DNA of 64,000 nucleotides from Jiella marina (lineage in GTDB: Bacteria; Pseudomonadota; Alphaproteobacteria; Rhizobiales; Rhizobiaceae). The DNA lies in the NCBI RefSeq assembly GCF_024359545.1, contig NZ_JAKQZG010000004.1, positions 310,001 to 374,000 on the forward strand, in the 5' to 3' direction. The notes beneath the pieces were generated by a model. The model was given only the letters and a program-made list of their open reading frames with translations, was not told the DNA's origin and did no database searches. Every line of letters begins with the position of its first letter. Position 1 is the first letter of the stretch. Below, one piece after another: positions 45,363-63,995 of this stretch. The position numbers and the translations under genes are program-made.

Positions 45363-47426
45363 TCAGCCTGCCGCCAGTCGGAGGGGATTCTCGTCTGTGG
45401 AATCTTCCCCAACAGAAAGGGCCTGCGGTGGCAGGCCGGCGGCATGGCGTTCATGGACCAGACGGTAGGCGCGTTCGAGATTGCGCGTGTAGCGCTCGCT
45501 CTGAAACAGTGGCGTGGTCAGGCGGTTTTGGGCAAGCTTTTCGCGCAAGGTGGCGTGCTTCTCACGGTCACGGGCGATCTCGAGCGCCAACTGCTCATAG
45601 GCTTCGTCGCTTTTCGTGATCAGTTCAGGCAGCCCGATCGCCGTCAGGACGCTGGCGGCGACCCGTGCCGCGAACTGGTCGCCGATCCGGGTCAGGACAG
45701 GCAGGCCTGCCCAGAGCGCGTCACTGGCCGTCGTGTGAGCGTTGACGACAAAGGTGTCGAGGAACAGGTCGGCAAGTCCTTGTCGTGCAAGATGGCTGGC
45801 GTGATCGGTCTTTTCGGCAAAGACAATGCGATCCGGATCGATGCCGTAGCGCGCCGCGGCCTGCTTCAGATTGCTCTCGGCCTCGGAATGAGACCGGAGA
45901 AGCCAAAGGCAGCTGCCCTCGACCCTTCGTAGGAGACGCATCCAGATCGCGAATTCTCGCGGCGTGATCTTGTAGGTCCCATTGAAGCAGCAGAAGACGA
46001 AGCCGGATGGAGGCAGGCCGAAATCCTCGCGGGTCAGGGAGGTGTCGGGGATCGCGCGCGTGTCGTCCGTCGCCTGATAGGTATGGGGCAGGCGGATGAT
46101 CGCTTCGCTGTAGTGCTTCTCCAGATCGGGTGGGATGATCACGGGATCGGCGACGAGATAGTCGATGGCAGGCGCCCCCATCGTCGCCGGGTAGCCGAGA
46201 TAGCTGATCTGGATCGGCGCTGCGCGGTGGAAGAAGATGCCCGGCCGCGAGTTCTTGGTGAACCCCTTGAGATCGACCGCGATGTCGAGACCGTCGGCTC
46301 GGGCGCGCTCGGCAATCTCACGGTCCGTGAGCGCACGGACATCGTCGAACCGGCTCACTGATTTCTTCAGGTCCGCCGTGATCCTTTCGTCCGTTTCAGT
46401 GCCGAAGGAATACAGGAGGATATCAAAGGCATCGCGGTCGTGATGGGCGAAGACCTGTGACATCAGGCACATGGTGGCATGGGAGTGGAAGTCGGCCGAG
46501 AAGTAACCGACCCTGATCCGATTTGATTGCCCGGAGACCAGCGGCGAAGGGAGCGGTTCTGAAGCAGTGAACCGTTCCACCCATCGCTCCGACCGCCGGC
46601 GCTGACGCGCCGGCGCATCTTCCAGCGCCAAGGTCGTGAACGGGTCGACCGCCTCAGTCGTCAGGCCGAGGTTTTCGAGGTCCTGACTGTACATCTCGAA
46701 GCGTTGCCAGTCGCACAGATGGGCGAGTTGATGCAGGAGATAGGCACGCGCCTTGCCGTGACCGGGCGAAAGCTCCAGCGTCCGGATGAAGTTTGCGACG
46801 GCTTCGTCGGCGTTTCCCATCATCTGATGGGTGCCGGCGATATTGTAGAACAGGTCGGGATCGTCCCTGGCGACGCGCGCCGCCTCGCCATAATGCGTCA
46901 GCGCCTCGTCATACCGATGCTGATCGCGCAGAAGGCCGCCGAGGTTCGTCCGCGCGCCGGCATGGGTCGGCGAGAGCGCGATCGCTTTCTCGAACGCGGC
47001 GCGCGCATCATTCTTGCGGTTCTGCGCCTTGAGAACGACACCCAGATTGTTGTGCGCGTCGGCATCCTGAGGGTTGGCCGCGACGGCGTTCCGGAAATTC
47101 TCCATCGCCGCGTCGAGGCGACCAAGACTCTTGTTGGCGCTGCCCAGGATGTTCCACAGGGTTGCCGAGCGGGGATAGGTCTTGGCCAGCACCGCGCCGC
47201 GCAGCGTCACGGCGCCGAAGTCGCCGCGATGATAAAGTGCTGCCAGTTCGTTCAAGCTTTCGATCGGCGGATCGAAGGCCCGTCCGCGCAAGGCTTCCAG
47301 CCCCTTTTGAGCGCGCTGGTTCTGCGGAAACCTGGCAAGGATGCTGGTATAGAGGCCGATCGCTTCGGCGAACTCGCCATTCTTTTCGTGGCGCCTGGCC
47401 TGAGCAATCAGCTTGTCGAGTTTCAT
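45363..47426 (-). CDS. TPR and SPINDLY/OGT-like glycosyltransferase
   Basis: 687 residues. The first ~250 form about six tetratricopeptide repeats (for example DADAHNNLGVVLKAQNRKNDARAAFEKAI). From ~290 to 660 comes a GT41-type catalytic region: GYFSADFHSHATMCLMSQ, DLKGFTKNSRPGIFFHRAAPIQISYLGYPATMG, FNGTYKITPREFAIWMRLL and LDTFVVNAHTTASDALWAGLPV, parallel to O-GlcNAc transferase. It should transfer a sugar from a nucleotide donor to Ser/Thr of a protein bound by the TPRs. It is the last gene of the minus-strand sugar run and its only recognisable glycosyltransferase. The acceptor could be flagellin or a surface protein, but none is in the window. Confidence 0.88.
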   Translation of the reverse strand: MKLDKLIAQARRHEKNGEFAEAIGLYTSILARFPQNQRAQKGLEALRGRAFDPPIESLNELAALYHRGDFGAVTLRGAVLAKTYPRSATLWNILGSANKSLGRLDAAMENFRNAVAANPQDADAHNNLGVVLKAQNRKNDARAAFEKAIALSPTHAGARTNLGGLLRDQHRYDEALTHYGEAARVARDDPDLFYNIAGTHQMMGNADEAVANFIRTLELSPGHGKARAYLLHQLAHLCDWQRFEMYSQDLENLGLTTEAVDPFTTLALEDAPARQRRRSERWVERFTASEPLPSPLVSGQSNRIRVGYFSADFHSHATMCLMSQVFAHHDRDAFDILLYSFGTETDERITADLKKSVSRFDDVRALTDREIAERARADGLDIAVDLKGFTKNSRPGIFFHRAAPIQISYLGYPATMGAPAIDYLVADPVIIPPDLEKHYSEAIIRLPHTYQATDDTRAIPDTSLTREDFGLPPSGFVFCCFNGTYKITPREFAIWMRLLRRVEGSCLWLLRSHSEAESNLKQAAARYGIDPDRIVFAEKTDHASHLARQGLADLFLDTFVVNAHTTASDALWAGLPVLTRIGDQFAARVAASVLTAIGLPELITKSDEAYEQLALEIARDREKHATLREKLAQNRLTTPLFQSERYTRNLERAYRLVHERHAAGLPPQALSVGEDSTDENPLRLAAG

Positions 47427-47536
47427 CGTCTCACGCAGTGGGGATAGGGCATGGGTGCCCCAAGGCTAGCGTGAGCCTCTTGCATCTGGCTGACTTCGAG
47501 CCCCTCGGCCCCTGACCGGTTGGGGCAAAAGGCCGC

Positions 47537-48289
47537 TCAGCTGATCTTGAGCCGCATCACCTCGCGCTGCGCGTCGCTGACGCGGTCCATCAGCGCGTCG
47601 CTGAAGGTGAGATGGAACTTCGTCCAGTCCGGCATGTAGCCGACGCTGTAGCAGTAGTAGAGCGTGCGGCGCCCGCGACCCGAGACATTGGGAAAGCTGC
47701 CATGGGTCATGGCTTCGGTGAAGATGATCGCGTCGCCTGGCTCCGTATCGAGAGGGATCAGGCCGATCTCGTCGCCGCTCGCATCGCCGGGCCGGGGAAA
47801 ATTCGCCTTGTGGGAACCGGGGATCGCCGCGAAGCAGCCATCCTCGATGCCGTGATTGGCGATGGGGAACACGACCTTGGTCAGGACGGAGAAGATCTGG
47901 CCGTTGCGGGCCTCGTAGTGCGCCTTCGGGTGAATCGGCGTTCCGGCCATGTGAAGCGGCGTTTCGCCGCCCTTCCAGTGGTAGATCGCATAAGTGTGGT
48001 TGAGGCGGAACAGCCCGAGGGTCGTTTCGCGGATGACGTCGAGGACTTGCGGGATGTCGATCAGCGCCTCGAATTCCGGCCCCGCCTCGGCGATGTTCGA
48101 CAGATAGAGCTCTTCGGCGGTACGCGGCTTGCTGCACACGACATGGGGCGGCAGGGCCTCTTCGGCGGCATTCTCCATCTCGTCCATCCGCGCATTGATG
48201 CGCGCGATCTGTTCCGGCGAAAGCACGTTCTTCAGGACCACATAGCCGTTCAGGTCGAAGAGATAGCGGGTGAGCTCATCCATGGGCAT
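47537..48289 (-). CDS. PhyH-like dioxygenase family protein without the usual HxD
   Basis: 250 residues of the phytanoyl-CoA dioxygenase fold: LNGYVVLKNVLSPEQIARIN at the start, VIPGSHK-type block AAIPGSHKANFPRPGD, PGDAIIFTEAMTHGSFPN with the distal His, and an Arg (GRGRRTLYYCYS) for 2-oxoglutarate. At the place of the HxD iron ligands it reads LHMAGTPIHP, an HxA pattern, as in a subfamily that usually reads LHGG. Activity may therefore not be a normal Fe/2-oxoglutarate hydroxylation. It overlaps the E1 beta gene by 14 bases. An alternative ATG is two codons in. Confidence 0.8.
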   Translation of the reverse strand: MPMDELTRYLFDLNGYVVLKNVLSPEQIARINARMDEMENAAEEALPPHVVCSKPRTAEELYLSNIAEAGPEFEALIDIPQVLDVIRETTLGLFRLNHTYAIYHWKGGETPLHMAGTPIHPKAHYEARNGQIFSVLTKVVFPIANHGIEDGCFAAIPGSHKANFPRPGDASGDEIGLIPLDTEPGDAIIFTEAMTHGSFPNVSGRGRRTLYYCYSVGYMPDWTKFHLTFSDALMDRVSDAQREVMRLKIS

Positions 48290-49253
48290 GGCCGATTGTC
48301 CGGTCTGTCACTGAGAATTCGGATCTCGCGATCCATTCGAGAACGGCCGCCTCGTCCAGGACGAAGCGATCGGGATTGGGAGAGAGGTCGCGCCTGTCGA
48401 TCCTGCGGTAAAGGGGCAGGGCACGGTGCGCAATGCCGCGATCGGCGAGGGCGCTCCGCAGGCGTTCGCCCGGGCGGTTCATCGAGCGGGAATCGTCGAT
48501 CAGGATCAGCCGGCCGGTGCGCGCGACCGATTCGGCGATGGCCGTCCAGTCGATGCGATTGACGGCGGCGACCCCGAAGAGATCGGCCGGGTGCCCGGCC
48601 GCTGCCAGGACCGCGCGCAGGCTGCGTGCCTGAGGCCAGGCGAAGTTGAAGGCGACGACCGTGGCGGCATCGCCGGACGCGAGCTTGAAAATGCCGGCCT
48701 CTCCGTCGATCCCTTCCGGCGCTTCCTGGTCCGCGGCGCTGCGGAACAACCGCTGGCTTGGCGCCAGAAGGCGAAAGCCCGGTGCCACGAGATGACGTGC
48801 GATAATCGTCTCGGCCGCATTCGCATCAGAGAGTGCATAGGCCTCGAAGTCGCCGAGCGAACAGAAATCGGCGAGATTGTTCAATCGCGACTGGGGCCCT
48901 TCGAAGCCGCTGTCGACCACGATCGGCACGATGGTGAAGGAGCCGGTCGCGCCCGCCTGACGCGCCATGTTCCAGGTGTTGACCATCTGGTCGGCCGCAA
49001 GCAGCAGGAAATCGAGCTGCTTGACGAAGAAGATGGAGTCCACGCCTTCGAGCATCAGGCCGAAGCCGAAGCCGGCCATGGCGTTTTCGCAGTTCGGCGT
49101 GTTGATCGCCTCGATGCCTGCATGCACCGCAAGGTCTCGCGTCAGACCCGAGAGGCAGCTGGCGACGGTGATGTTCTGGCCGAAGCAGACGACGCGGTCC
49201 GCCCTGGCGAGCCGCTCCCTGATCGCGGCATTGATGATTTCGACAAAGGTCAT
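48276..49253 (-). CDS. thiamine-diphosphate enzyme E1 beta subunit-like (transketolase C-terminal type)
   Basis: 325 residues of the pyrimidine-binding/transketolase C-terminal type: FVEIINAAIRERLARADRVVCFGQNI, HAGIEAINTPNCENAMAGFGFGLMLEG with the conserved Glu region, and a C-terminal RLILIDDSRSMNRPGERL domain. It pairs with the E1 alpha gene upstream, overlapping by 4 bases. Pyruvate and branched-chain dehydrogenases have this two-gene E1, but no lipoyl E2 or E3 is nearby. In a sugar cluster the pair may instead transfer a C2 or acyl unit to a keto sugar. That is inference. Confidence 0.8.
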   Translation of the reverse strand: MTFVEIINAAIRERLARADRVVCFGQNITVASCLSGLTRDLAVHAGIEAINTPNCENAMAGFGFGLMLEGVDSIFFVKQLDFLLLAADQMVNTWNMARQAGATGSFTIVPIVVDSGFEGPQSRLNNLADFCSLGDFEAYALSDANAAETIIARHLVAPGFRLLAPSQRLFRSAADQEAPEGIDGEAGIFKLASGDAATVVAFNFAWPQARSLRAVLAAAGHPADLFGVAAVNRIDWTAIAESVARTGRLILIDDSRSMNRPGERLRSALADRGIAHRALPLYRRIDRRDLSPNPDRFVLDEAAVLEWIARSEFSVTDRTIGHAHG

Positions 49254-50224
49254 GCCAGGAACCCGTCCAAAGGCGCGCGGGCTTCCGCGACAAGCCGGCG
49301 CCAGGTTTCGGCAGGAAGTCGGCCCGAAAGCCGATAGAGCGGATCGCGCTCGCTTTCTTCGATGATCGGCCCCGCTTCGTAGCTGATATGGGCCGCGCCG
49401 CCATGGTGGTAGTTGATGGTGCGTGGCGGCTTGCCTTCTTCGGTGACCTCCCGGTCGCCGAGGGTCGCCAGGGTCACTTCCACGATGGCCGGCCTCTGCG
49501 CTTCGGCGACGTCGGCCCGGAGCGCCGTCATCCCCTTGAGACAGGCCTCGGCGTCATCCCCGGAAAGTCTGCGAAAGGGAATCGCGAAAGCCTCGGCCAA
49601 TCGCTGTAGATCCAAGGCGCAGCGGCGTTCGGCGACGCGGGTATACATCGACCAGTCATTGTTCTCGACGAGGAAGATCAGTGGCAGGCGCAGGCTCGTC
49701 GCCATCATGAGGGCTTCGTAAAAGGCGCCTTCTTCGAGCGCCCCGTCACCGGTCACCGCGAAAGTCACGGCGTCGGCCTGCTTGACCGCGCGGCCCTTCG
49801 CGACACCCACCGCAACGGGCAGGCAATTGCCGAGAATGCTCGACGTGTAGACGATACCGTTCTCCGGAGCGATCAGGTTCATCGCTCCGAAGCGGCCGCC
49901 GCCTGGCGCGTCCCTCTCCAGCCGGTACTCGGCGATTTCGGCCGCGAGATCGGCATTCCGGGCGATGTTGTAGTGAATGTTGCGGTGGGTCAGCAGCAGG
50001 CGATCATGCGCGCCCATCGCCATGGAGACCGCGACCGCGACGGCCTCGTGGCCGAGCGCCAGATGGATCGGCACCTGAAAGGCTCGCCGTTTGACGAGTT
50101 CGTTGACCACGAGCATCGACAGGCGCAGGCGCAGCATTTCCCACGCGAGTGTCTCCATCACTTCGCCGGCCTGCTCGATCGAATCTCGGGCAAGGGGAGA
50201 CTTGCTGGTTTCAAAGGCTTCCAT
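49250..50224 (-). CDS. thiamine-diphosphate-dependent E1 alpha subunit
   Basis: 324 residues with the complete diphosphate-binding motif GDGALEEGAFYEALMMATSLRLPLIFLVENN split as GDG (~166) and NN about 28 residues later, LGHEAVAVAVSMAM near residue 60, and LTHRNIHYNIARN. It is clearly a 2-oxo-acid dehydrogenase E1 alpha-type enzyme. The start at 50224 is chosen because it overlaps the upstream epimerase by 14 bases in the same style as its neighbours; the frame to 50422 is inside that gene. Its partner is the E1 beta gene. Substrate is unknown. Confidence 0.83.
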   Translation of the reverse strand: MEAFETSKSPLARDSIEQAGEVMETLAWEMLRLRLSMLVVNELVKRRAFQVPIHLALGHEAVAVAVSMAMGAHDRLLLTHRNIHYNIARNADLAAEIAEYRLERDAPGGGRFGAMNLIAPENGIVYTSSILGNCLPVAVGVAKGRAVKQADAVTFAVTGDGALEEGAFYEALMMATSLRLPLIFLVENNDWSMYTRVAERRCALDLQRLAEAFAIPFRRLSGDDAEACLKGMTALRADVAEAQRPAIVEVTLATLGDREVTEEGKPPRTINYHHGGAAHISYEAGPIIEESERDPLYRLSGRLPAETWRRLVAEARAPLDGFLA

Positions 50225-50804
50225 GGTTGGCTCTGAACTCGGCGAAGGAGGAATAACTGGCGTGCTCGTCCGATAGTTGCGGCTGGTGGTTGTCGAGCGG
50301 CCAGTCGATGGCCAGTTCCGGATCGTTCCAGGCGATACCCGCTCCGGCTGCGGCCGCATAGTCGCGATCGGCGAAGATGACCAGATCGGCGTGGGCCGAA
50401 AGGGAGAGGCAGCCATGGGCAAAGCCCGGCGGCACCTTCAGACCCGCTGCCCCGCCCTCCGCTTCCGGCGAGAGCCTGAAGCCCTGCCAGCGTCCGAAGC
50501 TGCGGCTTTGTCTGCGCAGATCCACCACTACCCAGAACATCTGGCCCGAGACGGCGGCGATGACCTTGCCTTCGCTGTGGGGGGCAAGTTGGCAGTGCAG
50601 GCCACGCAGGACGTACGGTTCGCGCGTTGCGGAGAAGAGTACCTGCTTGGCATCGACCGCCAGTCCCTCGGCCGTCATCCTTCCACCGGCCACGAGCTTC
50701 ACCAGTGAACCGCGCCAGTCCACATGGCGTTGAAACGGTGCGGTGACGACCGGCGGCAAGACGGGATCGAAACAGGTCATGGCGTTGGATGGCGAGGTTG
50801 TCAT
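50211..50804 (-). CDS. dTDP-4-dehydrorhamnose 3,5-epimerase (RfbC) family protein
   Basis: 197 residues with the RfbC cupin core: FQRHVDWRGSLVKLV, the catalytic-His motif VLRGLHCQLAPHSEGK, KVPPGFAHGCLSLS and GIAWNDPELAIDWPL. It should epimerise C3 and/or C5 of a nucleotide 4-keto-6-deoxysugar. No rfbA, rfbB or rfbD is in the window, so the substrate is probably not dTDP-glucose-derived; the GDP-4-keto-heptose expected from the upstream genes is a candidate. It overlaps both neighbours. Confidence 0.87.
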   Translation of the reverse strand: MTTSPSNAMTCFDPVLPPVVTAPFQRHVDWRGSLVKLVAGGRMTAEGLAVDAKQVLFSATREPYVLRGLHCQLAPHSEGKVIAAVSGQMFWVVVDLRRQSRSFGRWQGFRLSPEAEGGAAGLKVPPGFAHGCLSLSAHADLVIFADRDYAAAAGAGIAWNDPELAIDWPLDNHQPQLSDEHASYSSFAEFRANHGSL

Positions 50805-51661: not shown

Positions 51662-52587
51662 GCGTCAGGGCTTTCGACAGGCTTTGCCGGCAGCAGGCCC
51701 AGAAACTGCGCCACGTCCCGTAACCCGGCTTCGAGGTCGGTTTCGGCCCGCCAGCCAAGGGACTGAGACGCAAGGACGCCCGAGACGTTCCGGATGCTCG
51801 GATGGTCCGGGTCGCTTTCGACCAGTCGGCATTCGTGTCCGAGAAGTCCTGCAGCCGTCTCGACTACTTCGCGCAAGGTGATCGGCCGGTCCGGCTGGAT
51901 GTTGAAGACCTCGAAGCCAGTGCGGTCTCGTGCTGCCAGAATCGCGCGCGCGATGTCGCCCACATGCAGAAAGCCGCGCGCCGTACGGGCGGAGCCCACC
52001 ACGACGTTGCCGCCCTCGGCCACCTTGGCAAGAAGCGCCTCGACCGCCGACCAGTTGTCATGGCGCGGCCCGTAGATGATGCCGAAGCGCAGGACCGTGA
52101 CCGCGATCTCGGGATGACGTGCCTGCTGTTGTTTCAGAAGAGCTTCGCCCGCCAGCTTCGAGAGCGCGTATTCGGAGGTGAGCGCCAGTGCGTCGATCGG
52201 CGTGTCTTCGGTTTTCGCAATGCCGGGATCGAACCGGTCATAGACCCACTCGCTGGATGCGAAGATCAGGCGGGAAATGTTCCGTTCGACCATGGCGCGA
52301 AACAGATTGGCCGTGCCGGTGACGTTGACGTCGAAGCACGCGACCGGATCGCGGCGGCAGTCGCTGTCGCGGGCGATGGCCGCCAGATGAACGACCGCGT
52401 CGATCCCTCCCGGGAGCCGCTTGGCGAGATCCGGGTCGCGAATGTCGGCTTCGATGAATTCGTCGCACGCTTCTGCCGGGGGCGCCCTGTCGAGCCCGAC
52501 GACCCGAATGCCGGCTGCGCGGCATTGGCGAATGAGCTCGGCGCCGACGAAGCTCGACGCGCCGGTCACGAGAAGTGTCATGCCCAC
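51658..52587 (-). CDS. NAD-dependent epimerase/dehydratase (extended SDR)
   Basis: 309 residues, extended short-chain dehydrogenase fold: MTLLVTGASSFVGAELIRQC (GxxGxxG), FDVNVTGTANLFRAM, IFASSEWVYD, and catalytic YALSK near residue 145, ILRFGIIYGP-like TVLRFGIIYGPRHDNW. It acts on a nucleotide-linked sugar as 4-epimerase, dehydratase or 4-reductase; which one is not clear. It overlaps the next gene by 4 bases and the previous by 10. Confidence 0.86.
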   Translation of the reverse strand: MGMTLLVTGASSFVGAELIRQCRAAGIRVVGLDRAPPAEACDEFIEADIRDPDLAKRLPGGIDAVVHLAAIARDSDCRRDPVACFDVNVTGTANLFRAMVERNISRLIFASSEWVYDRFDPGIAKTEDTPIDALALTSEYALSKLAGEALLKQQQARHPEIAVTVLRFGIIYGPRHDNWSAVEALLAKVAEGGNVVVGSARTARGFLHVGDIARAILAARDRTGFEVFNIQPDRPITLREVVETAAGLLGHECRLVESDPDHPSIRNVSGVLASQSLGWRAETDLEAGLRDVAQFLGLLPAKPVESPDA

Positions 52588-57264: not shown

Positions 57265-58499
57265 GACACCGCCTCCAGATCCTGCAAGGCCGGGATCGGC
57301 ACCACCATGCGCCCGCCGGAGCCGAGATAATCGGAAAACTGCCGGGCGATCTCTTCGGCGAAGTTCCAGGCGAAGACGATAACGAGATCCGGCCGGTCCT
57401 CCAGGATGCGCTCGGGCGCGACGATCGGAATGTGGCTGCCGGGCGTGACCCGGCCCTGTTTGAGGGTGTTGCGATCGGCGATGTAGTCGAGATCGTCCGG
57501 GCCGAGACCGAAAAAGGCGATCATGGTGTTGCCCTTGGCCGGCGCGCCGTAGCCGACGACACGGCCGCCCTTGCGCTTCATTTCGGCGATCAGATCGAGG
57601 AGGTTGCTGCGAATATCCTCGATCCGGGCCACGAGCGTCTCAAAGGGCGCCTTGGTCGTGAGGCCCCGCTCTTCCTCGAGCGCGGCGAGGGCGGCCACCG
57701 CCGGTGCGACCGGGCGCCGACCCTTGCGGCCCGCCCAAACCCGCAACTGGCCGTGATGGATCGGCAGCCGCTCGACATCGAACACTTCGAAACCGTGAGC
57801 GGCGAACAGCGCCTGCATGGGCGTGAGCGCCCAGTAGGAGACATGCTCGTGATAGATTGTGTCGAAGGCGCAGAGATCGAGTAAGTCCATCAGATAATGG
57901 GCTTCGAGAACGAAGACGCCGTCTTCGTCGAGCATGACGTCGATCGCCTGCATCAGACCGGAAAGATCCGGAATGTGAGGAAAGGTGTTGGTCATGGTGA
58001 GGACCGAAGCCGGGCCGTGCGTGTCCCTGAGCTGGCGCGCGAGGGCAAGATCGAAATAGCCCGTGGTCACCTCCGCGCCCTTGGCGCGCGCGGTCTCCGC
58101 CAGATTCGCGGCCGGGTCGACGCCCTGCCGTCTCTCGATTCTGGCTTTGCCAAAGCCTTCCAGCAGCGTGCCGTCATTGCAGCCGACGTCGACGACCAGC
58201 GCGGATGCGCCGAGATCGAGGCTGCGAACGATCTTCGCCGCCAGCCCATGAAGATGGTCGGTCAGCGTCGAGGAGGCCGATGACATATAGAGATAGTGAT
58301 CGAACATCGCCGATGGCGGCACCAGATCGAGCAGTTGGGCGTGGCCACAGGCACGGCACAGGCTGAGCCGCAGCGGATAGAGCGTTTCACCCCCGGCGGC
58401 GGCCTCTTCCGGCTTCAGGAAGTTGTTGGCCGGCGCCGTCTTTCCGAGGTCGAGCACTTCGTCGACCTTCCCGCCGCCACACAGAAGACATCCAGCCAA
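57261..58499 (-). CDS. TylCIII-type sugar C-methyltransferase
   Basis: 412 residues in three parts: zinc-binding N-terminus (CLLCGGGKV, CRACGHAQLLD), SAM-binding core (VVDVGCNDGTLLEGF near residue 103, LTMTNTFPHIPDLS) with the catalytic Tyr-His block DTIYHEHVSYW, and a C-terminal domain with VVGYGAPAKGNTM. This is the layout of TylC3/NovU-type enzymes that C3-methylate 4-keto-deoxysugars. It implies a branched sugar. It overlaps the CmcI-type gene by 4 bases and follows hddA by 41 bases. Confidence 0.88.
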   Translation of the reverse strand: MAGCLLCGGGKVDEVLDLGKTAPANNFLKPEEAAAGGETLYPLRLSLCRACGHAQLLDLVPPSAMFDHYLYMSSASSTLTDHLHGLAAKIVRSLDLGASALVVDVGCNDGTLLEGFGKARIERRQGVDPAANLAETARAKGAEVTTGYFDLALARQLRDTHGPASVLTMTNTFPHIPDLSGLMQAIDVMLDEDGVFVLEAHYLMDLLDLCAFDTIYHEHVSYWALTPMQALFAAHGFEVFDVERLPIHHGQLRVWAGRKGRRPVAPAVAALAALEEERGLTTKAPFETLVARIEDIRSNLLDLIAEMKRKGGRVVGYGAPAKGNTMIAFFGLGPDDLDYIADRNTLKQGRVTPGSHIPIVAPERILEDRPDLVIVFAWNFAEEIARQFSDYLGSGGRMVVPIPALQDLEAVS

Positions 58500-58540: not shown

Positions 58541-59554
58541 CTAGCCCATGCCATAGCTGTGGATGCGCACGCCATTCGGCTCGTAGCCGACCTTCAACTC
58601 CCGCAGATCGCCCATCGCGCCGCGGATCGCGTCGTGTCGCTCAGGCGGCGCGAGAAACATGAGGAAACCGCCGCCGCCTGCACCGCAGAGCTTGCCGCCA
58701 TAGGCGCCTGCGGCAATGCCGGCGCGATACCAGCCGTCGATGGCGCTGGAACTGATCGAGTCGGCCAATTGCCGCTTCATCTCCCAGCCCTCGTTCAAGA
58801 GACAACCGAGAGCAGCGACATCGATGCCGTCGAAGGTCATCTTGCGCATGTCGTCCGCCTGCGCCTTCATCGTGCGCAGCCGTTCGAGATTGAGGTCCGT
58901 GCGGGCGTTCTGGCTTTCCAGGACCTCGCCGGCGTCGCGGCTGATGCCGGTCCAGAACATCAGGATCGAGCGGAACAGCCCGTCGATCTCCCGCGGTGGC
59001 AGGGATTGGGGCTCGACGGTGACGCGATCGTTTTCCAGGAAGCGGAAATAGTTCAGGCCGCCAAAGGCCGCGGCGTATTGATCCTGCTTTCCGATCGGGC
59101 GCTGCAGCATCTCGATCTCGACCGTCGCGGCTTCCTCGGCAAGTTGCGCCGGCGAGACCCGCTCGCCCCTCAGAACATGGAGGGCCGAGAGCAGGCTGAC
59201 CGCAAAGCTGGAGGAGGCACCGAGGCCGGACGAGGTCGGAATATCCGCAATGACGCCGATATAAAGCGGCGGATCGCAGGGGACCAGCTTCAGGCACTCC
59301 CGGACGATCTGGTTGCGGATCGCCTCGACATCGTCGACGATCTCGGCTTCCGAGTAGTTCAGCCGGTAGGTGCGCCCGAAGAACGGGCTGAGGCGCTTCA
59401 CCGTGACATAGACGTGCTGGTCGATCGCCGAGGACAGAACGGCACCACCCTCGCGCCGGTAGAACGCCGGCAGATCCGTTCCGCCGCCCGCGAAACTGAT
59501 CCGAAAGGGCGCGCTGGCGAGAATGTAGCCGGGCCCGCTCGCCAGACTACCCAT
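58541..59554 (-). CDS. hddA: D-glycero-D-manno-heptose 7-phosphate kinase (GHMP family)
   Basis: 337 residues. GHMP-kinase motifs: APFRISFAGGGTDLPAFY at the start, ATP loop IPTSSGLGASSSFAVSLLSAL near residue 105, and the C-terminal LCGAGGGGFLMFLAP. The GGGTDLPAFY phrase is typical of HddA, which phosphorylates D-glycero-D-manno-heptose 7-phosphate at O1 in the GDP-heptose route (an L-fucose kinase-type activity is a less likely alternative). With gmhA and the HddC-GmhB fusion in the same run, the assignment is strong. The start at 59554 has GGGGCG upstream and overlaps the preceding gene by 8 bases. Confidence 0.88.
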   Translation of the reverse strand: MGSLASGPGYILASAPFRISFAGGGTDLPAFYRREGGAVLSSAIDQHVYVTVKRLSPFFGRTYRLNYSEAEIVDDVEAIRNQIVRECLKLVPCDPPLYIGVIADIPTSSGLGASSSFAVSLLSALHVLRGERVSPAQLAEEAATVEIEMLQRPIGKQDQYAAAFGGLNYFRFLENDRVTVEPQSLPPREIDGLFRSILMFWTGISRDAGEVLESQNARTDLNLERLRTMKAQADDMRKMTFDGIDVAALGCLLNEGWEMKRQLADSISSSAIDGWYRAGIAAGAYGGKLCGAGGGGFLMFLAPPERHDAIRGAMGDLRELKVGYEPNGVRIHSYGMG

Positions 59555-60023
59555 GACGAACGCCCCAGTCGTAGGGAACATGATCGCCGAACGGATCGAT
59601 GTAGATCAACTCGCCTGGATCGTGGGGCATGGTGGCGCAATTGGCGAGGATCGCCATCTTGTCGCCGAAAGCCTTATAGCCGTTGGTGATGCCTGGCGGA
59701 ATCTTGACCAGCAGCCGGTTCTGTTCCCCCATGAAGACCTCGGTCAGATTGCCCCGTGTGGGCGATCCCTCGCGGTCGTCGTAGAGCACCAGTTTCAGCA
59801 TGCCGACGACGCAGAAATTGTTAAGCGTCATACGGGTGTGTATGTGCCATGCCTTGACCACGTCCGGGTAGCCGCACGAAAAATAGATCTCGCCAAACTG
59901 CTCGAATTCCGGGTCGGAGGATTTGAGCATGTGGAAGATCGCGCCGCGCTCGTCGGGAATCGTGCGCTTGCGCACGATTTCGACGCCCTCGATCATCGAA
60001 CCCTTCACGCCGTCGATGCTCAT
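59547..60023 (-). CDS. RfbC-like cupin, probable nucleotide-sugar 3,5-epimerase
   Basis: 158 residues, a divergent RfbC-type cupin: RTIPDERGAIFHMLK, FGEIYFSCGYPDVVKAWHIH (catalytic His region), LVKIPPGITNGYKAFGDK and IPFDWG-like end HVPYDWGV. It probably isomerises C3/C5 of the 4-keto sugar made by the adjacent dehydratase, as MlghB-type enzymes do in Campylobacter heptose pathways. Start chosen at 60023, where GGGAGG stands at ideal spacing; in-frame ATGs at 60068 and 60074 would overlap the dehydratase gene. Confidence 0.82.
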   Translation of the reverse strand: MSIDGVKGSMIEGVEIVRKRTIPDERGAIFHMLKSSDPEFEQFGEIYFSCGYPDVVKAWHIHTRMTLNNFCVVGMLKLVLYDDREGSPTRGNLTEVFMGEQNRLLVKIPPGITNGYKAFGDKMAILANCATMPHDPGELIYIDPFGDHVPYDWGVRHG

Positions 60024-60054
60024 CTTTCGGCCTCCCGGCGCGTCGCCGTTGAAA

Positions 60055-61047
60055 TCAGTGTGAGCCATTGGCAACGCGCTCGCGCCAATAGGCGAGCGTA
60101 TCGCTCAAGATCTGTTCGTAGGAAAGACGCGGCTCCCAGCCCGTCAGCGCGCGGAACGGCCCGGTATCGGCGATCAACCGGGGCACCTGCGTCGGGCGAA
60201 CGAACTCCGGATCGATGCGATAGGTGATGCCTTTCACCGTGGACATGGCGATCAGCGCTTCCAGCGCTTCCCGGAAGGTGTGGACCGAGGCTTCGTCCTC
60301 CGAGCCGATCAGGAACATCTCGCCCGCCGGCAGTTTCTCGCTTGCAAGCCCGTAGGCCGCGACCATGTCCTTCACATGGGTGAAGTTCCGCCGATCGTCG
60401 ATATGGCCGACGCGAAGTTCCTTGCCCGCGAGGCCGGCTTCGGCAAGTGCGATCTGATAGGCGTACCAGGGAATACCGAAGACCTTCTCGCGGCGCGGTC
60501 CCTCATGGTTGAAGGCGCGGGTGCGCACCACGTCGAGCCCGTAGGAGGCGTGATAGACGTAGCCGATCAGATCCTGGGCCACCTTCGTCACGGCATAGGG
60601 GTTCACCGGGCGCAGCACCGTGGTGTCGCGGATGGGCAGTTCATGTTCCTCGATCTGGCCGTACTCCTCGCCCGAACCCGGGATCAGCAGTCGGGCCTTC
60701 GAGCCGGTCTGGCGCATCGCTTCGAGGATGTTGAGCGTGCCGTTGTAGTTCACCGCCATGTAGCGATGCGGGTTTTCCCAGGACGGGCTGACGAAGCTCT
60801 CGGCGGCGAAGTGGAAGATCCGGTCCGGGGTCGCCTTCTCGATCGCCGTTCGCGTCGAGACCGGATCGGTGAGATCGCAATCGATGAAGGTGAGGCGATC
60901 GGCAATGTGGCGGACATTGTCCATCCGCGAGAGATGCCACCGCTTGGTCGCGAAGAGCTTCGCCCCGGGGCGGCTCTCGAACAGGTATTCGGCCATGTGG
61001 GAGCCGACGAATCCGGTCACGCCGGTGATGAGGATGTGTTCGCTCAT
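60055..61047 (-). CDS. GDP-mannose 4,6-dehydratase-like SDR (possible GDP-heptose 4,6-dehydratase)
   Basis: 330 residues: ITGVTGFVGSHMAEYLFES (NAD motif), FHFAAESFVSPSWENP, the catalytic stretch PGSGEEYGQIEE and YAVTK near residue 150, and RAFNHEGPRREKVF. These blocks match the GDP-mannose 4,6-dehydratase group. As it sits directly after a complete GDP-D-glycero-D-manno-heptose gene set, it more likely dehydrates GDP-heptose, like DmhA of Yersinia and Campylobacter, giving a 4-keto-6-deoxy-heptose. That substrate is inferred from context. Start ATG 61047 follows the fusion gene by 19 bases. Confidence 0.84.
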   Translation of the reverse strand: MSEHILITGVTGFVGSHMAEYLFESRPGAKLFATKRWHLSRMDNVRHIADRLTFIDCDLTDPVSTRTAIEKATPDRIFHFAAESFVSPSWENPHRYMAVNYNGTLNILEAMRQTGSKARLLIPGSGEEYGQIEEHELPIRDTTVLRPVNPYAVTKVAQDLIGYVYHASYGLDVVRTRAFNHEGPRREKVFGIPWYAYQIALAEAGLAGKELRVGHIDDRRNFTHVKDMVAAYGLASEKLPAGEMFLIGSEDEASVHTFREALEALIAMSTVKGITYRIDPEFVRPTQVPRLIADTGPFRALTGWEPRLSYEQILSDTLAYWRERVANGSH

Positions 61048-61066: not shown

Positions 61067-62308
61067 TCAGTTTGCCGCGGGCCGGGTTTGGGCCCTTTGG
61101 TCCAGAAAGTCGAGGAGGTCGGGAAGGGACTGGGCGAGACCCTTTTCGGGATCGACCGGGAAGAAGGGCTGGTCGGCCTTGGCCGCAGCCTCGCCGTCGC
61201 GCGGATCGTCGCCAACGAAGGGCGTGACGCTCAGATCCAGGGCATGGGCGCGCTGTGCCTCATACAACATTCCGGGGGCCGGTTTGCGGCAGTCGCAACC
61301 GTCGTCCCAGTGATGGGGGCAGTGGAAAACGTCGAGAATCTCGCCGCCCGCCGCGCGAGCCTCGTCGATCATCCGGACGTGAATGGAATCGAGATCGGCT
61401 TGCGTCATCATGCCGCGCGCGATCCCCGCCTGGTTCGTCACCACGATCACGTCGGCGCCATGGCCCTTGAGTGTCGCCAGAGCGTCCAGGGCGCCGGGCA
61501 GCCACTGCCATTCCTCGGGATTCGCGACATAGGTCCCGCGCGGGGCCTTGACGTTCAGGACGCCGTCCCGGTCGAGGATGACGCATGGCCGGCGCGTGAA
61601 GAAGCGGATGGCCTCGGACAGCTTCTCCGGGCTCCCGCAGCTATAGTAGCGATGCGAGGTCTCGAAGGCCGTGAGTTGGCCGCGCGAGGCGAGAAGGGGA
61701 TAGATCGCCGCTTCGAACGAACAGTTGTCTTCGGGCAGGAGATCGACGACGTCGCGTTTCATCACGATGAAGCCAATATCGACGCCGGCAAGATCGGGGT
61801 CCGTCCGCGACTTGTCGTAGGAAGTCACGAATCCGTTCGCGTCGACGCGGATGTTGTCACGCGTGTGGCGGTCACGATTGCGGTAGACCGTCACCTGGGC
61901 GAGAGCTTCAGGCCGGGCTGAAAACGCCTGCCACATCCGGGCAAACGGCATCGGCCAGTAATTGTCGCAGTAAAGCAGGAGAAAGGCCGGATCGAGCTTG
62001 GAGAATGCACGCTTGACCCGGCGTCCCGTGTCGTCTTCTGCCGGGCCGAACGAATAGTCGATTTCAAGGCCGAAGCGACTGCCGTCGCCGCAATGATCGA
62101 CGATCATTTCCGCCTTGTGACCGAGCAGCAGGAGAACGCGGGTGAACCCTTGCGACTTCAACAGTCGGAGAAGATGATCGAGAAACGGCCGGTCGCCCGC
62201 CATGACGAGCGGCTTCGGTCGATCCTGGGTGAGTGCGCCCAGCCTCGTGCCGAGCCCGCCCGCGAGGATGACCGCCTGGTCGGGCCTGCGCGCCGACCCC
62301 ATGCTCAT
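61067..62308 (-). CDS. fused heptose-1-phosphate nucleotidyltransferase and GmhB phosphatase
   Basis: 413 residues with two enzymes in one chain. Residues ~10-235: sugar-nucleotide transferase with LAGGLGTRLGALTQDRPKPL and LLYCDNYWP. Residues ~240-400: HAD-IIIA phosphatase with ILDRDGVLN (nucleophile Asp), VVTNQAGIARG, and the GmhB zinc motif CPHHWDDGCDCRKPAPGM. It would dephosphorylate D,D-heptose 1,7-bisphosphate and then activate the 1-phosphate, the HddC and GmhB steps, which are usually separate proteins. GTP use is assumed from the HddA-type pathway. It overlaps gmhA by 4 bases. Confidence 0.9.
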   Translation of the reverse strand: MSMGSARRPDQAVILAGGLGTRLGALTQDRPKPLVMAGDRPFLDHLLRLLKSQGFTRVLLLLGHKAEMIVDHCGDGSRFGLEIDYSFGPAEDDTGRRVKRAFSKLDPAFLLLYCDNYWPMPFARMWQAFSARPEALAQVTVYRNRDRHTRDNIRVDANGFVTSYDKSRTDPDLAGVDIGFIVMKRDVVDLLPEDNCSFEAAIYPLLASRGQLTAFETSHRYYSCGSPEKLSEAIRFFTRRPCVILDRDGVLNVKAPRGTYVANPEEWQWLPGALDALATLKGHGADVIVVTNQAGIARGMMTQADLDSIHVRMIDEARAAGGEILDVFHCPHHWDDGCDCRKPAPGMLYEAQRAHALDLSVTPFVGDDPRDGEAAAKADQPFFPVDPEKGLAQSLPDLLDFLDQRAQTRPAAN

Positions 62309-62946
62309 GGAGTTTTCCGTGTCTTGTCGCCACCGCAGGCCTGATCGAGCACCGCGTGAATGAGCGAGAGATGTGTAATCTCGACGAAGCCGTAGCTCGT
62401 CGAATCCACGAAGAAGTTGAGGTCGCCGAGACCGCGGAGGGCATTGTCGGGAGAAAAGCCCGACAAGGTGACGACCTCCATGTCGCGGCCGCGCGCCGTC
62501 GCTACCGCGTTGAGGATGTTCGGCGAGCGCCCCGAACTGCTGATCGCCATCAGAAGGTCGCCCGGCTGTCCGTGAATGCCGATCTGGGTCGAGAAGACGT
62601 TCTCATAGCCGAGATCGTTGCTCAGGCAGGTGAGGGCGGCCGCATCGTTGAAAGCCATCGCGCGAAGCGATCCGTTCTTGGCGTAGTCGATCGCCATATG
62701 GCTCGCGATAGCGGCGCTTCCGCCATTGCCGATGAAGACGAGCTTGCCCGGCCCGGCCGCGATATCGAGCGCGCGGTCCACGACCCGGTCGATGGCGACG
62801 CCGAGCGGAACGCCCTGGCCGCTGCGATCGATCACGCTGGTCGACTGTCCCAGACGAGACAATTCCTCGAAATAGGCGTCGATCGCGACATTCGGCGAAT
62901 CGAAGGTCTCAGGCAGGGAAGCGGAGCGTGCGGTCATTCTCGTCAT
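62305..62946 (-). CDS. gmhA: phosphoheptose isomerase GmhA (SIS domain)
   Basis: 213 residues, SIS fold: FIGNGGSAAIASHMAIDYAKNG near residue 90, ALTCLSNDLGYENVFSTQI and AISSSGRSPNILNAV, with a C-terminal ITHLSLIHAVLD helix carrying the conserved His. It converts sedoheptulose 7-phosphate to D-glycero-D-manno-heptose 7-phosphate, the first step of all ADP- or GDP-heptose routes. It is the first gene of the heptose set, overlapping the fusion gene by 4 bases. Confidence 0.9.
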   Translation of the reverse strand: MTRMTARSASLPETFDSPNVAIDAYFEELSRLGQSTSVIDRSGQGVPLGVAIDRVVDRALDIAAGPGKLVFIGNGGSAAIASHMAIDYAKNGSLRAMAFNDAAALTCLSNDLGYENVFSTQIGIHGQPGDLLMAISSSGRSPNILNAVATARGRDMEVVTLSGFSPDNALRGLGDLNFFVDSTSYGFVEITHLSLIHAVLDQACGGDKTRKTP

Positions 62947-63041
62947 TCGAAACTGGCGGCGGCGCCGATACGATCAGCGAAACGCATGAAAACTGAATTC
63001 CGGAGCCGGCGGCCTGCAATACCGGCCGCCTCTCGGCGCGT

Positions 63042-63995
63042 TCAGGTCGCGCTCGTCCTCCACCGTTCCACAGCCTGACGCAGGCCATCATCGAGAACGA
63101 TGCGAGGGACGAAGCCCAACTCGCCGGTCAATCTACGCGTATCGGCGACGATGCATGGCGCGTCGCCGGCTCGTTTCGCACGACTGCCGATTCGCAGCAA
63201 GTCGGCGCGTCCGGTGATGTCGGCAATTCTTCGTGCAATTTCAGCAATCGAGACCGCCACGCCTCGGGCAATGTTGATCGGTCCTTCCACGTCACTGAAC
63301 AGGAGGGCGACCAGCGCCTCTCCCGCATCCTCCACCGCCATGTAGTCCCGCAGGAGATCGCCGGGACCGGTCTCGGCAACTTCGCCTCGGCAAAGCTTGC
63401 CGATCAGGTCGGGGACCAGCCGGGTCGGTTTTTCGCCGGGGCCATAGAGAAAAAACAGACGGGCGTGGGCCGCCGATATCCAAGCGCTTCGGCGCGCTTC
63501 TTCGACGTGGCGAAACAGGCCGATCTTCGCGTCCGCATAGGCGGTGACGGGCAGGAGCGGCGTTTCGGTTTCGTGGCAGGGGGCGGATGAGGCGGCGTAT
63601 TCGGCACAACTGCCCGCTGTCACGAAACGCTTGCCCTCCGCACGGAGGAAGGCGTCGAGCAGGCGTTTGCTGGCGGCGAGCCACGCGGCGTTCTCGTCGC
63701 CCGTCAAATAGCTGCCGGCCTGTGTGTGCCAGGCGAGGTGCAGGAGCATATCGGGTCGCGCCTGCGCCATCAGCGCCTCGGGATCGTCGGTGAGGAGATC
63801 ATGGCGCAGCCATTCGATCCGGCTTCCGCGAGGCGAGGGGCGCGGCGGCTGGGTGGTTGTACAGAGGATGGTGAGATCTGCGCGGCTCTCAAGCGCTGCA
63901 AGGACACTCCGCCCGACGAAACCGCCCGCTCCGGTGAGAAGAACACGCCCCCGACCGCCTTCATCCGGTCGCCATGCTTCCCGCCTCCTCGTCAT
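63042..63995 (-). CDS. NAD-dependent epimerase/dehydratase (extended SDR)
   Basis: 317 residues: VLLTGAGGFVGRSVLAAL (dinucleotide loop), LLHLAWHTQAGSYL, VTAGSCAEYAASSAPCHE, the catalytic YADAK near residue 153, and RLFFLYGPGEKPTRLVP. The THxxW/EYAxx features resemble 4-keto-sugar reductases and epimerases of glycan clusters. A GC-rich 7-bp hairpin GGCGGCC/GGCCGCC lies between it and gmhA (about 63009-63031). The start is close to the right edge, so the operon very probably continues beyond the window. Confidence 0.85.
   Translation of the reverse strand: MTRRREAWRPDEGGRGRVLLTGAGGFVGRSVLAALESRADLTILCTTTQPPRPSPRGSRIEWLRHDLLTDDPEALMAQARPDMLLHLAWHTQAGSYLTGDENAAWLAASKRLLDAFLRAEGKRFVTAGSCAEYAASSAPCHETETPLLPVTAYADAKIGLFRHVEEARRSAWISAAHARLFFLYGPGEKPTRLVPDLIGKLCRGEVAETGPGDLLRDYMAVEDAGEALVALLFSDVEGPINIARGVAVSIAEIARRIADITGRADLLRIGSRAKRAGDAPCIVADTRRLTGELGFVPRIVLDDGLRQAVERWRTSAT

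What the first reader, a model, noticed from the sequence alone, without database searches (positions are those of the whole stretch)
45363..63995. 18-gene minus-strand cluster for a heavily tailored heptose, with an OGT-like transferase as the only glycosyltransferase
Seen: eighteen consecutive genes, most with 4-14 base overlaps, combine GDP-heptose synthesis, 4,6-dehydration, epimerases, three methyltransferase-fold proteins, two oxygenases, radical SAM and a thiamine-diphosphate E1 pair. No Wzx/Wzy, no lipid-linked initiator and no ordinary glycosyltransferase is present in the window. Known: GT41 SPINDLY-type enzymes glycosylate proteins. Inference: the cluster may build one elaborate heptose-derived sugar and attach it to a protein through the TPR-OGT. 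I know of no described system with this gene set.
Basis: partly seen in the sequence, partly recalled or inferred. Interest (0 to 1): 0.8.

Follow-up and report, generated by a model that had tools for sequence, protein, structure and literature searches.

The report
Heptose-sugar protein glycosylation gene cluster
A run of 18 genes probably builds an unusual seven-carbon sugar and helps hang it on a surface protein, most likely the flagellum protein; close relatives keep the same two sugar-attaching enzymes but make a different sugar.

Summary
The 18-gene minus-strand run is real (11 of 17 junctions overlap). The claim that the OGT is the only glycosyltransferase fails just past the edge: a divergent GT2 ("x1") starts 174 bp from the first gene's start, and a second GT2 lies 6-7 kb out. 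No Wzx/Wzy was seen among the ORFs scanned before the contig ends.

Relatives are the key evidence. Seven of nine other same-genus (Aurantimonas/Jiella) genomes keep orthologues of this OGT (GT41) and of x1, but with a CDP-glucose-type cassette. This genome lacks the CDP dehydratase and carries a heptose cassette between the two enzymes. x1 and GT41 co-occur (43 of 46 x1 genomes tested). GT41 lies 1-2 kb from flagellin in 16 of 33 genomes, and both enzymes sit beside flagellins in several lineages. A related heptose cassette lies between flagellin/Pse and Maf/FliS genes in another proteobacterium. Changes private to this lineage pile up in x1's donor half, much less in the OGT.

Best reading: flagellin (protein) glycosylation in which GT41 probably starts the glycan and x1 adds the elaborated heptose: a new variant of a known kind. 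Acceptor and sugar are inferred, not shown.

The parts
45363..47426 (-). g18: TPR + GT41 (OGT-like) glycosyltransferase, 687 aa; proposed protein-targeting, chain-starting enzyme
   Evidence: Pfam Glyco_transf_41 288.5 bits plus TPRs; aligns with 110-kDa OGT chains in the PDB; equivalents of H498, K842 and the HTT..D motif kept (numbering and roles recalled); orthologues in 7 same-genus genomes
47537..48289 (-). g17: PhyH-type Fe/2-oxoglutarate oxygenase
   Evidence: PF05721 65 bits; best PDB matches weak, E about 3e-6
48276..49253 (-). g16: divergent E1-beta-like thiamine-diphosphate subunit
   Evidence: sub-cut-off Transketolase_C/Transket_pyr; PDB E1-beta by phmmer, 62 bits; of 396 other genomes of the order only one matches at E<=1e-15, at 23% identity; 45% homologue in G509
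49250..50224 (-). g15: E1-alpha-like thiamine-diphosphate subunit (start uncertain)
   Evidence: PF00676 110.7 bits; 45% homologue next to the E1-beta homologue in G509
50211..50804 (-). g14: RmlC-type sugar 3,5-epimerase
   Evidence: PF00908 120.5 bits
50801..51661 (-). g13: SAM methyltransferase
   Evidence: PF13489 68.7 bits
51658..52587 (-). g12: SDR epimerase/reductase
   Evidence: PF01370 154.7 bits; 51% homologue in G509, 43% in G562
52578..53507 (-). g11: SDR epimerase/reductase (start uncertain)
   Evidence: PF01370 47.7 bits
53504..54349 (-). g10: PhyH-like oxygenase
   Evidence: PF05721 26.3 bits, cut-off 22; no useful PDB match
54386..56290 (-). g09: B12-binding radical SAM enzyme
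   Evidence: PF04055 + PF02310; best named family a P-methyltransferase model far under its cut-off; homologues in 398 Pseudomonadota genomes only 29-36% identical
56512..57264 (-). g08: CmcI / rhamnosyl O-methyltransferase type
   Evidence: PF04989 239.7 bits; homologues 37-46% at x1 loci and 54% in G562
57261..58499 (-). g07: sugar 3-C-methyltransferase type
   Evidence: PF08484 + PF08421; PDB sugar 3-C-methyltransferase 5t64, E 1.5e-90
58541..59581 (-). g06: HddA-type heptose 7-phosphate kinase
   Evidence: PDB 3k85, E 2e-42; NCBIfam HddA 145 bits, under its cut-off of 600
59547..60074 (-). g05: second RmlC-type epimerase
   Evidence: PF00908 40.2 bits; 72% homologue in G509 beside g04 and HddA homologues
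60055..61047 (-). g04: GDP-mannose/GDP-heptose 4,6-dehydratase-like SDR
   Evidence: PDB 2pk3 (GDP-6-deoxy-hexulose reductase) 183.7 bits and 7us5 (GDP-heptose 4,6-dehydratase) 149.9 bits; of the three chains aligned, only 7us5 shares the RW...MDN and GPRR stretches
61067..62308 (-). g03: HddC-type nucleotidyltransferase fused to GmhB-type phosphatase
   Evidence: PF00483; NCBIfam GmhB 154 bits, cut-off 178; PDB heptose bisphosphatase 4pnh and heptose-pathway protein 6jq8
62305..62946 (-). g02: GmhA-like sedoheptulose 7-phosphate isomerase
   Evidence: PF13580; TIGR00441 gmhA 98.8 bits, under its cut-off of 209
63042..63995 (-). g01: SDR epimerase/reductase, first gene of the run. The divergent GT2 x1 starts 174 bp from its start, outside the window (L009:1170-2483, + strand)
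   Evidence: PF01370 105 bits; homologues at x1 loci 30-41%. x1: PF00535 63.4 bits, distance

Best explanation
The locus is a protein O-glycosylation system, most likely for flagellin, made of a conserved pair of glycosyltransferases and an exchangeable sugar cassette. Proposed steps: (1) the TPR domain of the GT41 enzyme binds the acceptor in the cytoplasm and its GT41 domain puts a first sugar on Ser/Thr [inferred]. (2) GmhA-, HddA- and HddC-GmhB-type enzymes make an NDP-, probably GDP-, D-glycero-alpha-D-manno-heptose [enzyme families shown, nucleotide and sugar inferred]. (3) The g04 SDR, two RmlC-type epimerases and three further SDRs make a 6-deoxy-4-keto derivative, epimerise it and reduce it. 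A 3-C-methyltransferase, O-methyltransferases, a B12 radical SAM, an E1-type thiamine-diphosphate pair (two-carbon branch onto a keto carbon) and two PhyH oxygenases decorate it [families shown; order and products inferred]. (4) The divergent GT2 x1 transfers that sugar onto the first one [inferred]. Close relatives keep the two transferases and carry a CDP-glucose 4,6-dehydratase cassette, some with a C-methyltransferase; this lineage has the heptose cassette in its place [shown by comparison; direction of the swap inferred].
For: Conserved pair, swapped cassette: 7 of 9 other same-genus genomes have GT41 and x1 orthologues beside RfbF-, RfbG- and RmlC-type genes; the sister RfbF and RfbG pass the NCBIfam cut-offs for glucose-1-P cytidylyltransferase and CDP-glucose 4,6-dehydratase. 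RfbG and two further sister-module genes have no match in this genome. Co-occurrence: 43 of 46 x1 genomes have a GT41 by Pfam; 25 of 101 relatives do by sequence search (my count from the capped listing; another method). In the same 101 genomes 11 of 11 with x1 have GT41 against 14 of 90 without; 8 of the 11 are one genus. Flagellin link: among 80 x1 loci, 17 of 28 that hold GT41 also hold flagellin, against 2 of 52 without GT41, including Sphingobium, Rubrimonas and Microvirga (Pfam) and Rhizobium Root1203 (tblastn). GT41 lies within 5 kb of flagellin (about 1.1-2.1 kb between matched domains) in 16 of 33 genomes. Sphingobium and Rubrimonas fall next to the window's own GT41 group. Heptose cassette with flagellin: G562 has HddA, HddC-GmhB, C-MT and CmcI homologues between flagellin/Pse genes and Maf/FliS. 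In G509 nine cassette genes (39-72%) lie near a TPR-glycosyltransferase. Division of labour: of positions invariant in five sisters, 51 changed only here and 7 only in A. coralicida for x1 (26 against 1 in residues 20-150), against 43 and 25 for GT41. R. leguminosarum flagellins stain as glycoproteins (PMC2936354, passages).
Against: No flagellin match lies in the window or the 17 kb beyond it; this genome's listed flagellin matches are on contigs C37 and C5 (three of four listed). Two same-genus genomes (G002, G007) have flagellins but neither transferase. G024 has six GT41 places, one of them placed near the window's group, but no flagellin match. x1 relatives also occur in Mycobacterium-type MAGs, which lack flagella (recalled), so x1 is not flagellum-specific. 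Three of 46 x1 genomes lack GT41. In 17 of 33 genomes, among them the sphingomonads, Azorhizobium, Aquabacter and Hyphomicrobium tested, GT41 is on another contig than the flagellins, or 95-260 kb away, or no flagellin was found. 27 of 80 x1 loci lack RfbF/RfbG. Ser/Thr content of the flagellin centre does not separate OGT-plus from OGT-minus species (0.23-0.30; OGT-minus G007 0.24). 13 of the 17 flagellin+GT41 loci are one Neorhizobium-type block, so the counts are not independent. The x1 burst could be relaxed constraint rather than a new donor, GT41 also leans the same way (43 against 25, p 0.04), and the test was made after seeing a first version of the numbers.
Confidence: 0.6

Rival explanations
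1. One reading: the OGT-like enzyme itself transfers the elaborated heptose directly to a protein, and x1 adds something else or belongs elsewhere. (This shares the protein-glycosylation part of the best explanation.)
For: The GT41 gene is the last gene of the same run as the cassette, 110 bases after g17. Its nucleotide-contact stretch differs from sisters at residues 543 and 549-551.
Against: That clustering is not significant (4 of 13 against 35 of 250, p 0.11). Window-only change is stronger in x1 (51 against 7) than in GT41 (43 against 25). In many Rhizobium/Ensifer genomes GT41 sits with flagellins while x1 is more than 10 kb from any GT41, often with the CDP-sugar cassette.
Confidence: 0.2
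2. Same machinery, different acceptor: the pair glycosylates an adhesin or other surface protein, not flagellin.
For: No flagellin near the locus here or within the stretches read for most same-genus species; G024 has GT41 genes without a flagellin match.
Against: No alternative acceptor gene was noticed by eye in the ORF lists beside the locus or its sisters; flagellin is the gene that recurs beside GT41 in several lineages.
Confidence: 0.2
3. A cell-surface polysaccharide (LPS O-antigen or capsule) cluster whose polymerisation genes lie elsewhere in the genome.
For: GDP-heptose and CDP-6-deoxyhexose cassettes are classic polysaccharide genes (recalled); x1 with RfbF/RfbG also occurs in Mycobacterium-type MAGs.
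Against: No Wzx, Wzy or initiator among the ORFs scanned in the 81 kb from window start to contig end; GT41-x1-flagellin association. The rest of the genome was not searched for polymerisation genes.
Confidence: 0.15
4. A small-molecule sugar pathway of orthosomycin type.
For: E1-type pair, C-methyltransferase, O-methyltransferases, GDP-mannose dehydratase and 2-oxoglutarate oxygenases recur in avilamycin/everninomicin pathways (PMC8234114 and PMC10338323, passages read).
Against: No scaffold-making or resistance genes among the 18 proteins; a TPR-GT41 is a protein-targeting kind of enzyme.
Confidence: 0.05

Closest known systems
Flagellin glycosylation islands of Enterobacteriaceae (PMC4875605, passages read)
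   Same: Variable sugar-biosynthesis cassettes with GT2, GT25 or GT41 enzymes; eleven GT41 enzymes carrying the SPINDLY domain; some islands make CDP-4-keto-6-deoxyglucose.
   Different: Those are inserted between fliC and fliA, and each strain's island holds transferases of one family only; here GT41 and GT2 are paired, the locus is away from flagellin, and the cassette is heptose-based. 'Heptose' has 0 occurrences in that paper's main text.
FlmG of Caulobacter crescentus (PMC7591256, passages and section 10 read)
   Same: Cytoplasmic enzyme with N-terminal TPR domain that binds flagellin and a C-terminal GT-B domain.
   Different: Donor is pseudaminic acid made by a NeuB pathway; no NeuB-type gene in this cluster. 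Orthology of FlmG with this GT41 was not tested; the Caulobacter control genome does contain a Glyco_transf_41 match.
OGT and SPINDLY (PDB 7yeh, 2jlb, 7y4i)
   Same: Same GT41 family and TPR-GT layout.
   Different: Whole-protein scores are higher to OGTs (410 bits to 7yeh, 294 to 2jlb) than to SPINDLY (254 bits); TPR stretches add to these scores. A SPINDLY-like GDP-sugar preference is therefore not indicated.
GDP-heptose pathways of Campylobacter, Yersinia and Burkholderia capsules (recalled; PDB 7us5, 6jq8, 3k85 matched)
   Same: HddA-, HddC-, GmhA- and GmhB-type enzymes and a GDP-heptose-type dehydratase.
   Different: Those feed capsules (recalled); here the cassette adds C-methylation, a thiamine-diphosphate pair, radical SAM and PhyH oxygenases and sits with a GT41.
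Avilamycin/everninomicin branched-sugar enzymes AviB1/B2 and EvdU5/EvdS3 (PMC8234114, PMC10338323, passages read)
   Same: Heterodimeric pyruvate-dehydrogenase-like pair assigned or proposed to add a two-carbon branch to a keto-sugar.
   Different: Antibiotic pathways; EvdU5/EvdS3 is stated as a hypothesis there; no orthology was tested here.

Membership tests
GT41 (OGT/SPINDLY) glycosyltransferase | Glyco_transf_41 domain above the curated cut-off | tested here: met
   288.5 bits, cut-off 25
GT41 (OGT/SPINDLY) glycosyltransferase | Catalytic and phosphate-binding residues (H498, K842, HTT..D of human OGT) | tested here: met
   Kept in alignments; residue roles and numbers recalled
GT41 (OGT/SPINDLY) glycosyltransferase | Protein glycosylation activity | not testable with these tools
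   Needs enzyme assay
Flagellin glycosylation island | Located at the flagellin locus | tested here: not met
   No flagellin match in window or 17 kb beyond; listed matches on contigs C37 and C5, cluster on C34. Met in relatives such as Neorhizobium, Sphingobium, Rubrimonas
Flagellin glycosylation island | Glycosyltransferase plus sugar-biosynthesis genes | tested here: met
Flagellin glycosylation island | Acts on flagellin | not testable with these tools
   Only neighbourhood and co-occurrence evidence
FlmG-type flagellin transferase | TPR N-terminus plus GT-B C-terminus | tested here: met
   TPRs plus GT41 domain; that GT41 is a GT-B fold is recalled
FlmG-type flagellin transferase | Pseudaminic acid (NeuB) pathway as donor | tested here: not met
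   No NeuB-type gene among the 18 cluster proteins; rest of the genome not searched for it
GDP-D-glycero-D-manno-heptose pathway | GmhA-, HddA-, GmhB- and HddC-type enzymes present together | tested here: met
   family level only, all under the NCBIfam equivalog cut-offs
GDP-D-glycero-D-manno-heptose pathway | GDP rather than another nucleotide | tested here: inconclusive
   HddC model 76 bits against cut-off 300, MurU 77 and mannose-1-P guanylyltransferase 93 bits, all under cut-off; g04 similarity to GDP-sugar enzymes is indirect support
Wzx/Wzy-dependent polysaccharide cluster | Flippase, polymerase or initiating phosphoglycosyltransferase near by | tested here: not met
   None among the 18 cluster proteins, 10 ORFs right of it and 20 left of it; unscanned ORFs remain and no genome-wide search was done

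The most novel reading that the evidence does not exclude
A modular relay on flagellin: a conserved GT41 starts the glycan, and a cassette-bound GT2 evolves in step with whichever sugar cassette is plugged in. In this species the cassette makes an antibiotic-like branched heptose (3-C-methyl, two-carbon branch from an E1-type thiamine-diphosphate carboligase, radical-SAM methylation, PhyH oxidation or ring closure), a kind of sugar that I did not see described on flagellin in the listings and passages of my ten paper searches.
Probability: 0.3. Interest if true: 0.72.

Novelty: new variant of a known kind. Interest (0 to 1): 0.56.

Why it matters
If right, it separates the constant part of a flagellin glycosylation system (two transferases) from its variable part (the sugar), and gives pairs of sister species in which donor specificity seems to have changed in one enzyme. 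That makes the old question of how bacterial protein glycosyltransferases choose donor and acceptor directly testable by comparing x1 and cassettes between sisters. It would also extend GT41-based flagellin glycosylation from enterobacteria to a broad set of Alphaproteobacteria and connect antibiotic-style sugar tailoring to a protein glycan.

Tried and rejected
GDP-donor (SPINDLY-like) specificity from sequence: rejected as unsupported, because the enzyme scores better to OGT than to SPINDLY. A donor-loop shift in the GT41 was looked for and was not significant. Ser/Thr enrichment of flagellins in OGT-bearing species: no difference (ten flagellins of seven genomes, one of them OGT-minus). Plasmid carriage of the cassette: no match for g16 at E 1e-20 or g04 at E 1e-60. 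Base composition does not mark the cassette as foreign. Proximity of the cluster to flagellar genes in G009 (about 21 kb, with other genes between) was not used as evidence, because the comparable flank in G004 does not lead to flagellar genes (read by eye). Orthosomycin-oxygenase kinship of g17: some of the best PDB hits are such oxygenases by my recollection of the entries, but at E about 3e-6, level with verruculogen synthase, so no claim is made. Literature: ten searches; I recognised no paper on GT41 flagellin glycosylation in Alphaproteobacteria in the listings, but one search listed only 20 of 158 papers and only open-licence PMC papers are held, so this is weak. No structure prediction was run.

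Rows dropped before counts: the tree used 55 of 67 GT41 rows (12 dropped as second copies of a genome already in, or as partial or stacked frames). One search's x1 alignment used 68 rows (loci L162-L231 without internal stops, plus the window). One search counted RfbF/RfbG only at 45% identity or more and C-MT at 33% or more; 15 of its 80 loci are shorter than 20.8 kb because the contig ends. Of the 80 loci I gave 46 to and 33 of those; the 33 left out loci already seen to hold GT41 with flagellin, the three Jiella loci and some others. On check, four things were mended: the number of short overlaps, the Pfam status of g16, the CDP names (now tested) and the absence of flagellin near the locus (now tested).

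Full report
What is there. The window is bases 310001-374000 of contig C34 of a 5.08-Mb, 41-contig assembly that is 99% complete. The 18 genes were re-read from the sequence; frames, starts and stops fit and 11 of 17 junctions overlap, nine of them by 4-14 bases. Pfam gives a fitting family above cut-off for 17 of 18; g16 (E1-beta) is sub-cut-off and rests on PDB similarity and its neighbour. The heptose assignments rest on HddA (PDB 3k85, E 2e-42), GmhB (NCBIfam 154 bits), a nucleotidyltransferase whose PDB matches include a 6-deoxy-manno-heptose pathway protein and a GmhA-like isomerase. All lie under the NCBIfam equivalog cut-offs, so the nucleotide and exact sugar are inferred. g04 scores best to a GDP-6-deoxy-hexulose reductase but shares two distinctive stretches with GDP-heptose 4,6-dehydratase. 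I call it dehydratase-like.

What lies past the edge. The contig continues 17,093 bases. A GT2 gene, x1, starts 174 bp from the start of the first cluster gene, on the other strand; a TetR regulator, DUF2585, a 5'-nucleotidase, an RmlC-type gene and a second GT2 follow. No Wzx/Wzy was seen among the 10 ORFs given to Pfam.

Same-genus comparison. In a search of 101 genomes (own plus 100 relatives), seven of nine other same-genus genomes (G001, G003-G006, G008, G009) carry an orthologue of the OGT; six near-full-length alignments are 52-53% identical and G001's is in pieces. The same seven carry x1. In all seven the OGT and x1 lie with nucleotidyltransferase, dehydratase and RmlC-type genes; an RfbG query taken from one of them finds the dehydratase in all seven at 75-100%. 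The nucleotidyltransferase and dehydratase of one of them pass the NCBIfam cut-offs for glucose-1-phosphate cytidylyltransferase (397 bits, cut-off 300) and CDP-glucose 4,6-dehydratase (420 bits, cut-off 278). Named records show Aurantimonas and Jiella species; the match between G handles and names is my inference from equal contig lengths. The nearest relative seen is A. coralicida HyVt-316, a MAG, with OGT 59% and x1 57%. G002 and G007 have neither orthologue. The present genome has no RfbG match at E 1e-20 (where 8 of 10 genus genomes match) and no match to two further sister-module proteins, a SPASM radical SAM and a GT4 (the same queries find A. coralicida at 76% and 52%). In the Jiella loci three sugar genes sit between OGT and x1; here the heptose run sits between them and the OGT is inverted.

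Cassette origin. E1-beta (g16) matches one of 396 other genomes of the order at E 1e-15 or better, at 23% identity. The HddC-GmhB fusion matches 15 of 398 Pseudomonadota genomes, own included, at E 1e-40 or better. Two of the others are over 50% identical. G509, outside the class, carries nine of the genes in one stretch at 39-72%: g12, g14, E1-alpha, E1-beta, HddC-GmhB, g04, g05, HddA and the C-methyltransferase. A GT-B-type protein and an SDR precede them; a Sel1-repeat protein and then a TPR-glycosyltransferase follow. No flagellin hit was seen in those 40 kb. G591 is a 4-kb contig with a GT2, HddC-GmhB, g04, g05 and part of HddA. A more distant version in G562 (26-54%) lies in a 40-kb stretch that starts with flagellin, PseB- and PseI-type genes and ends with Maf and FliS. 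That is the most direct link between a heptose cassette and flagellin. Eight marker genes of the cassette (g02, g05, g06, g10, g11, g15, g16, g17) were found at none of the 80 x1 loci.

Flagellin link of the transferase pair. All 80 were examined: 53 hold RfbF or RfbG, 28 hold GT41, 19 hold flagellin; 17 of 28 with GT41 also hold flagellin, against 2 of 52 without (Fisher p 3e-8, ignoring relatedness). Thirteen of the 17 share one Neorhizobium-type block (flagellins, GT41, x1, RfbF, RfbG, RmlC, mostly also C-methyltransferase and CmcI), so they count as about one event; Microvirga rosea, Rhizobium sp. Root1203, Rubrimonas cliftonensis and Sphingobium sufflavum are separate. Flagellin was confirmed with Pfam for Microvirga, Sphingobium and Rubrimonas and by tblastn only for Root1203; Microvirga's GT41 is cut at the locus end but was found in the whole genome. 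I gave 46 of the 80 loci to a GT41 search: 43 of the 46 genomes have one. I gave 33 of those 46 to a flagellin search: 32 have flagellin, and in 16 of 33 the GT41 lies within 5 kb of it, about 1.1-2.1 kb; by record title 15 of these 16 are Rhizobium, Ensifer or Sinorhizobium and one is Mycoplana, so again they are not independent. In the unnamed relatives GT41 lies beside flagellin in G010, G026, G037 and G055 (G055 seems to be the same genome as named locus L230), and about 5 kb from a Flagellin_N protein in G079. A quick tree puts the window's OGT with the Aurantimonas/Jiella set, then with Sphingobium, Rubrimonas and G024 (97% SH-aLRT); the Rhizobium/Neorhizobium enzymes lie in another part of the tree. 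Long branches were flagged, so deep joins are unsure.

Which transferase uses the cassette's sugar. Taking positions invariant in the same five sisters, x1 of this genome differs alone at 51 of 256 and A. coralicida (CDP cassette) alone at 7. For GT41 the figures are 43 and 25 of 349 (Fisher p 0.002 between the two enzymes). In x1 the excess is greatest in residues 20-150, the GT2 nucleotide-sugar half (26 against 1). This points to x1 as the enzyme that adapted to the new donor, with GT41 supplying a constant first step. It is a post-hoc relative-rate argument on one lineage, not proof.

Results against. Flagellin is not near this locus; two flagellated sister species lack the pair; G024 has six GT41 places without a flagellin match; x1 relatives occur in Mycobacterium-type MAGs; in 17 of 33 genomes GT41 is not near flagellin on the contigs seen; 27 of 80 x1 loci lack the CDP genes; flagellin Ser/Thr content is uninformative.

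Chemistry. An E1-type heterodimer is assigned in avilamycin and proposed in everninomicin to add a two-carbon branch to a keto-sugar (PMC8234114, PMC10338323; passages). The same logic is the simplest role for g15/g16, since no E2/E3 partner is among the 18 proteins. The roles of the radical SAM and PhyH enzymes are guesses.

Literature. GT41 enzymes in flagellin glycosylation islands are described for Enterobacteriaceae (PMC4875605, passages). FlmG shows a TPR domain directing a cytoplasmic transferase to flagellin (PMC7591256, passages and section 10). R. leguminosarum flagellins stain as glycoproteins and run heavier than predicted, with no transferase named in the passages read (PMC2936354). 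A review of rhizobial motility discusses flagellar glycosylation in Azospirillum (PMC8429497, passages).

Verdict. Real cluster, real heptose-type cassette, interpretation partly right. It works like a flagellin glycosylation island but does not meet the location criterion, so I do not file it as one.

Noticed in passing
window 12627-15806 (-): One 1059-aa ORF fuses an ammonium transporter to GGDEF and EAL domains.
   Followed up: no
L010:9463-14454 (-), contig C1 of the same genome: A 1663-aa protein with an N-terminal GT2 domain and a partial C-terminal GT41 domain, with an ORF that matches g04 about 5 kb away; a second, distant GT41-like gene in this genome.
   Followed up: partly
L054 (G083:C293), about 13500-17731: Two or more GT41 genes in tandem in long open frames, with CmcI- and epimerase-type genes and a GT2 near by; the named record L234 of apparently the same contig adds FkbM-, GT4- and SPASM-type genes.
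   Followed up: no
G024, contig C1: Six places matching the GT41 query (one with a stop inside) in a genome with no flagellin match; its GT41 acceptor must be something else.
   Followed up: no
L237, L239, L240, L241: x1-like GT2 genes in Mycobacterium/Mycolicibacterium-type MAG contigs, in L237 with RfbF/RfbG and in L241 with RfbF.
   Followed up: no
L009:6520-8262: An RmlC-type gene and a second GT2 facing it, about 5.5-7.3 kb past the window edge; this GT2 had no hit in the sister loci searched.
   Followed up: partly
L051:7158-13010 (G001): In G001 (84% complete assembly) the GT41 and x1 genes match in pieces in different frames, which looks like sequencing error or decay.
   Followed up: no
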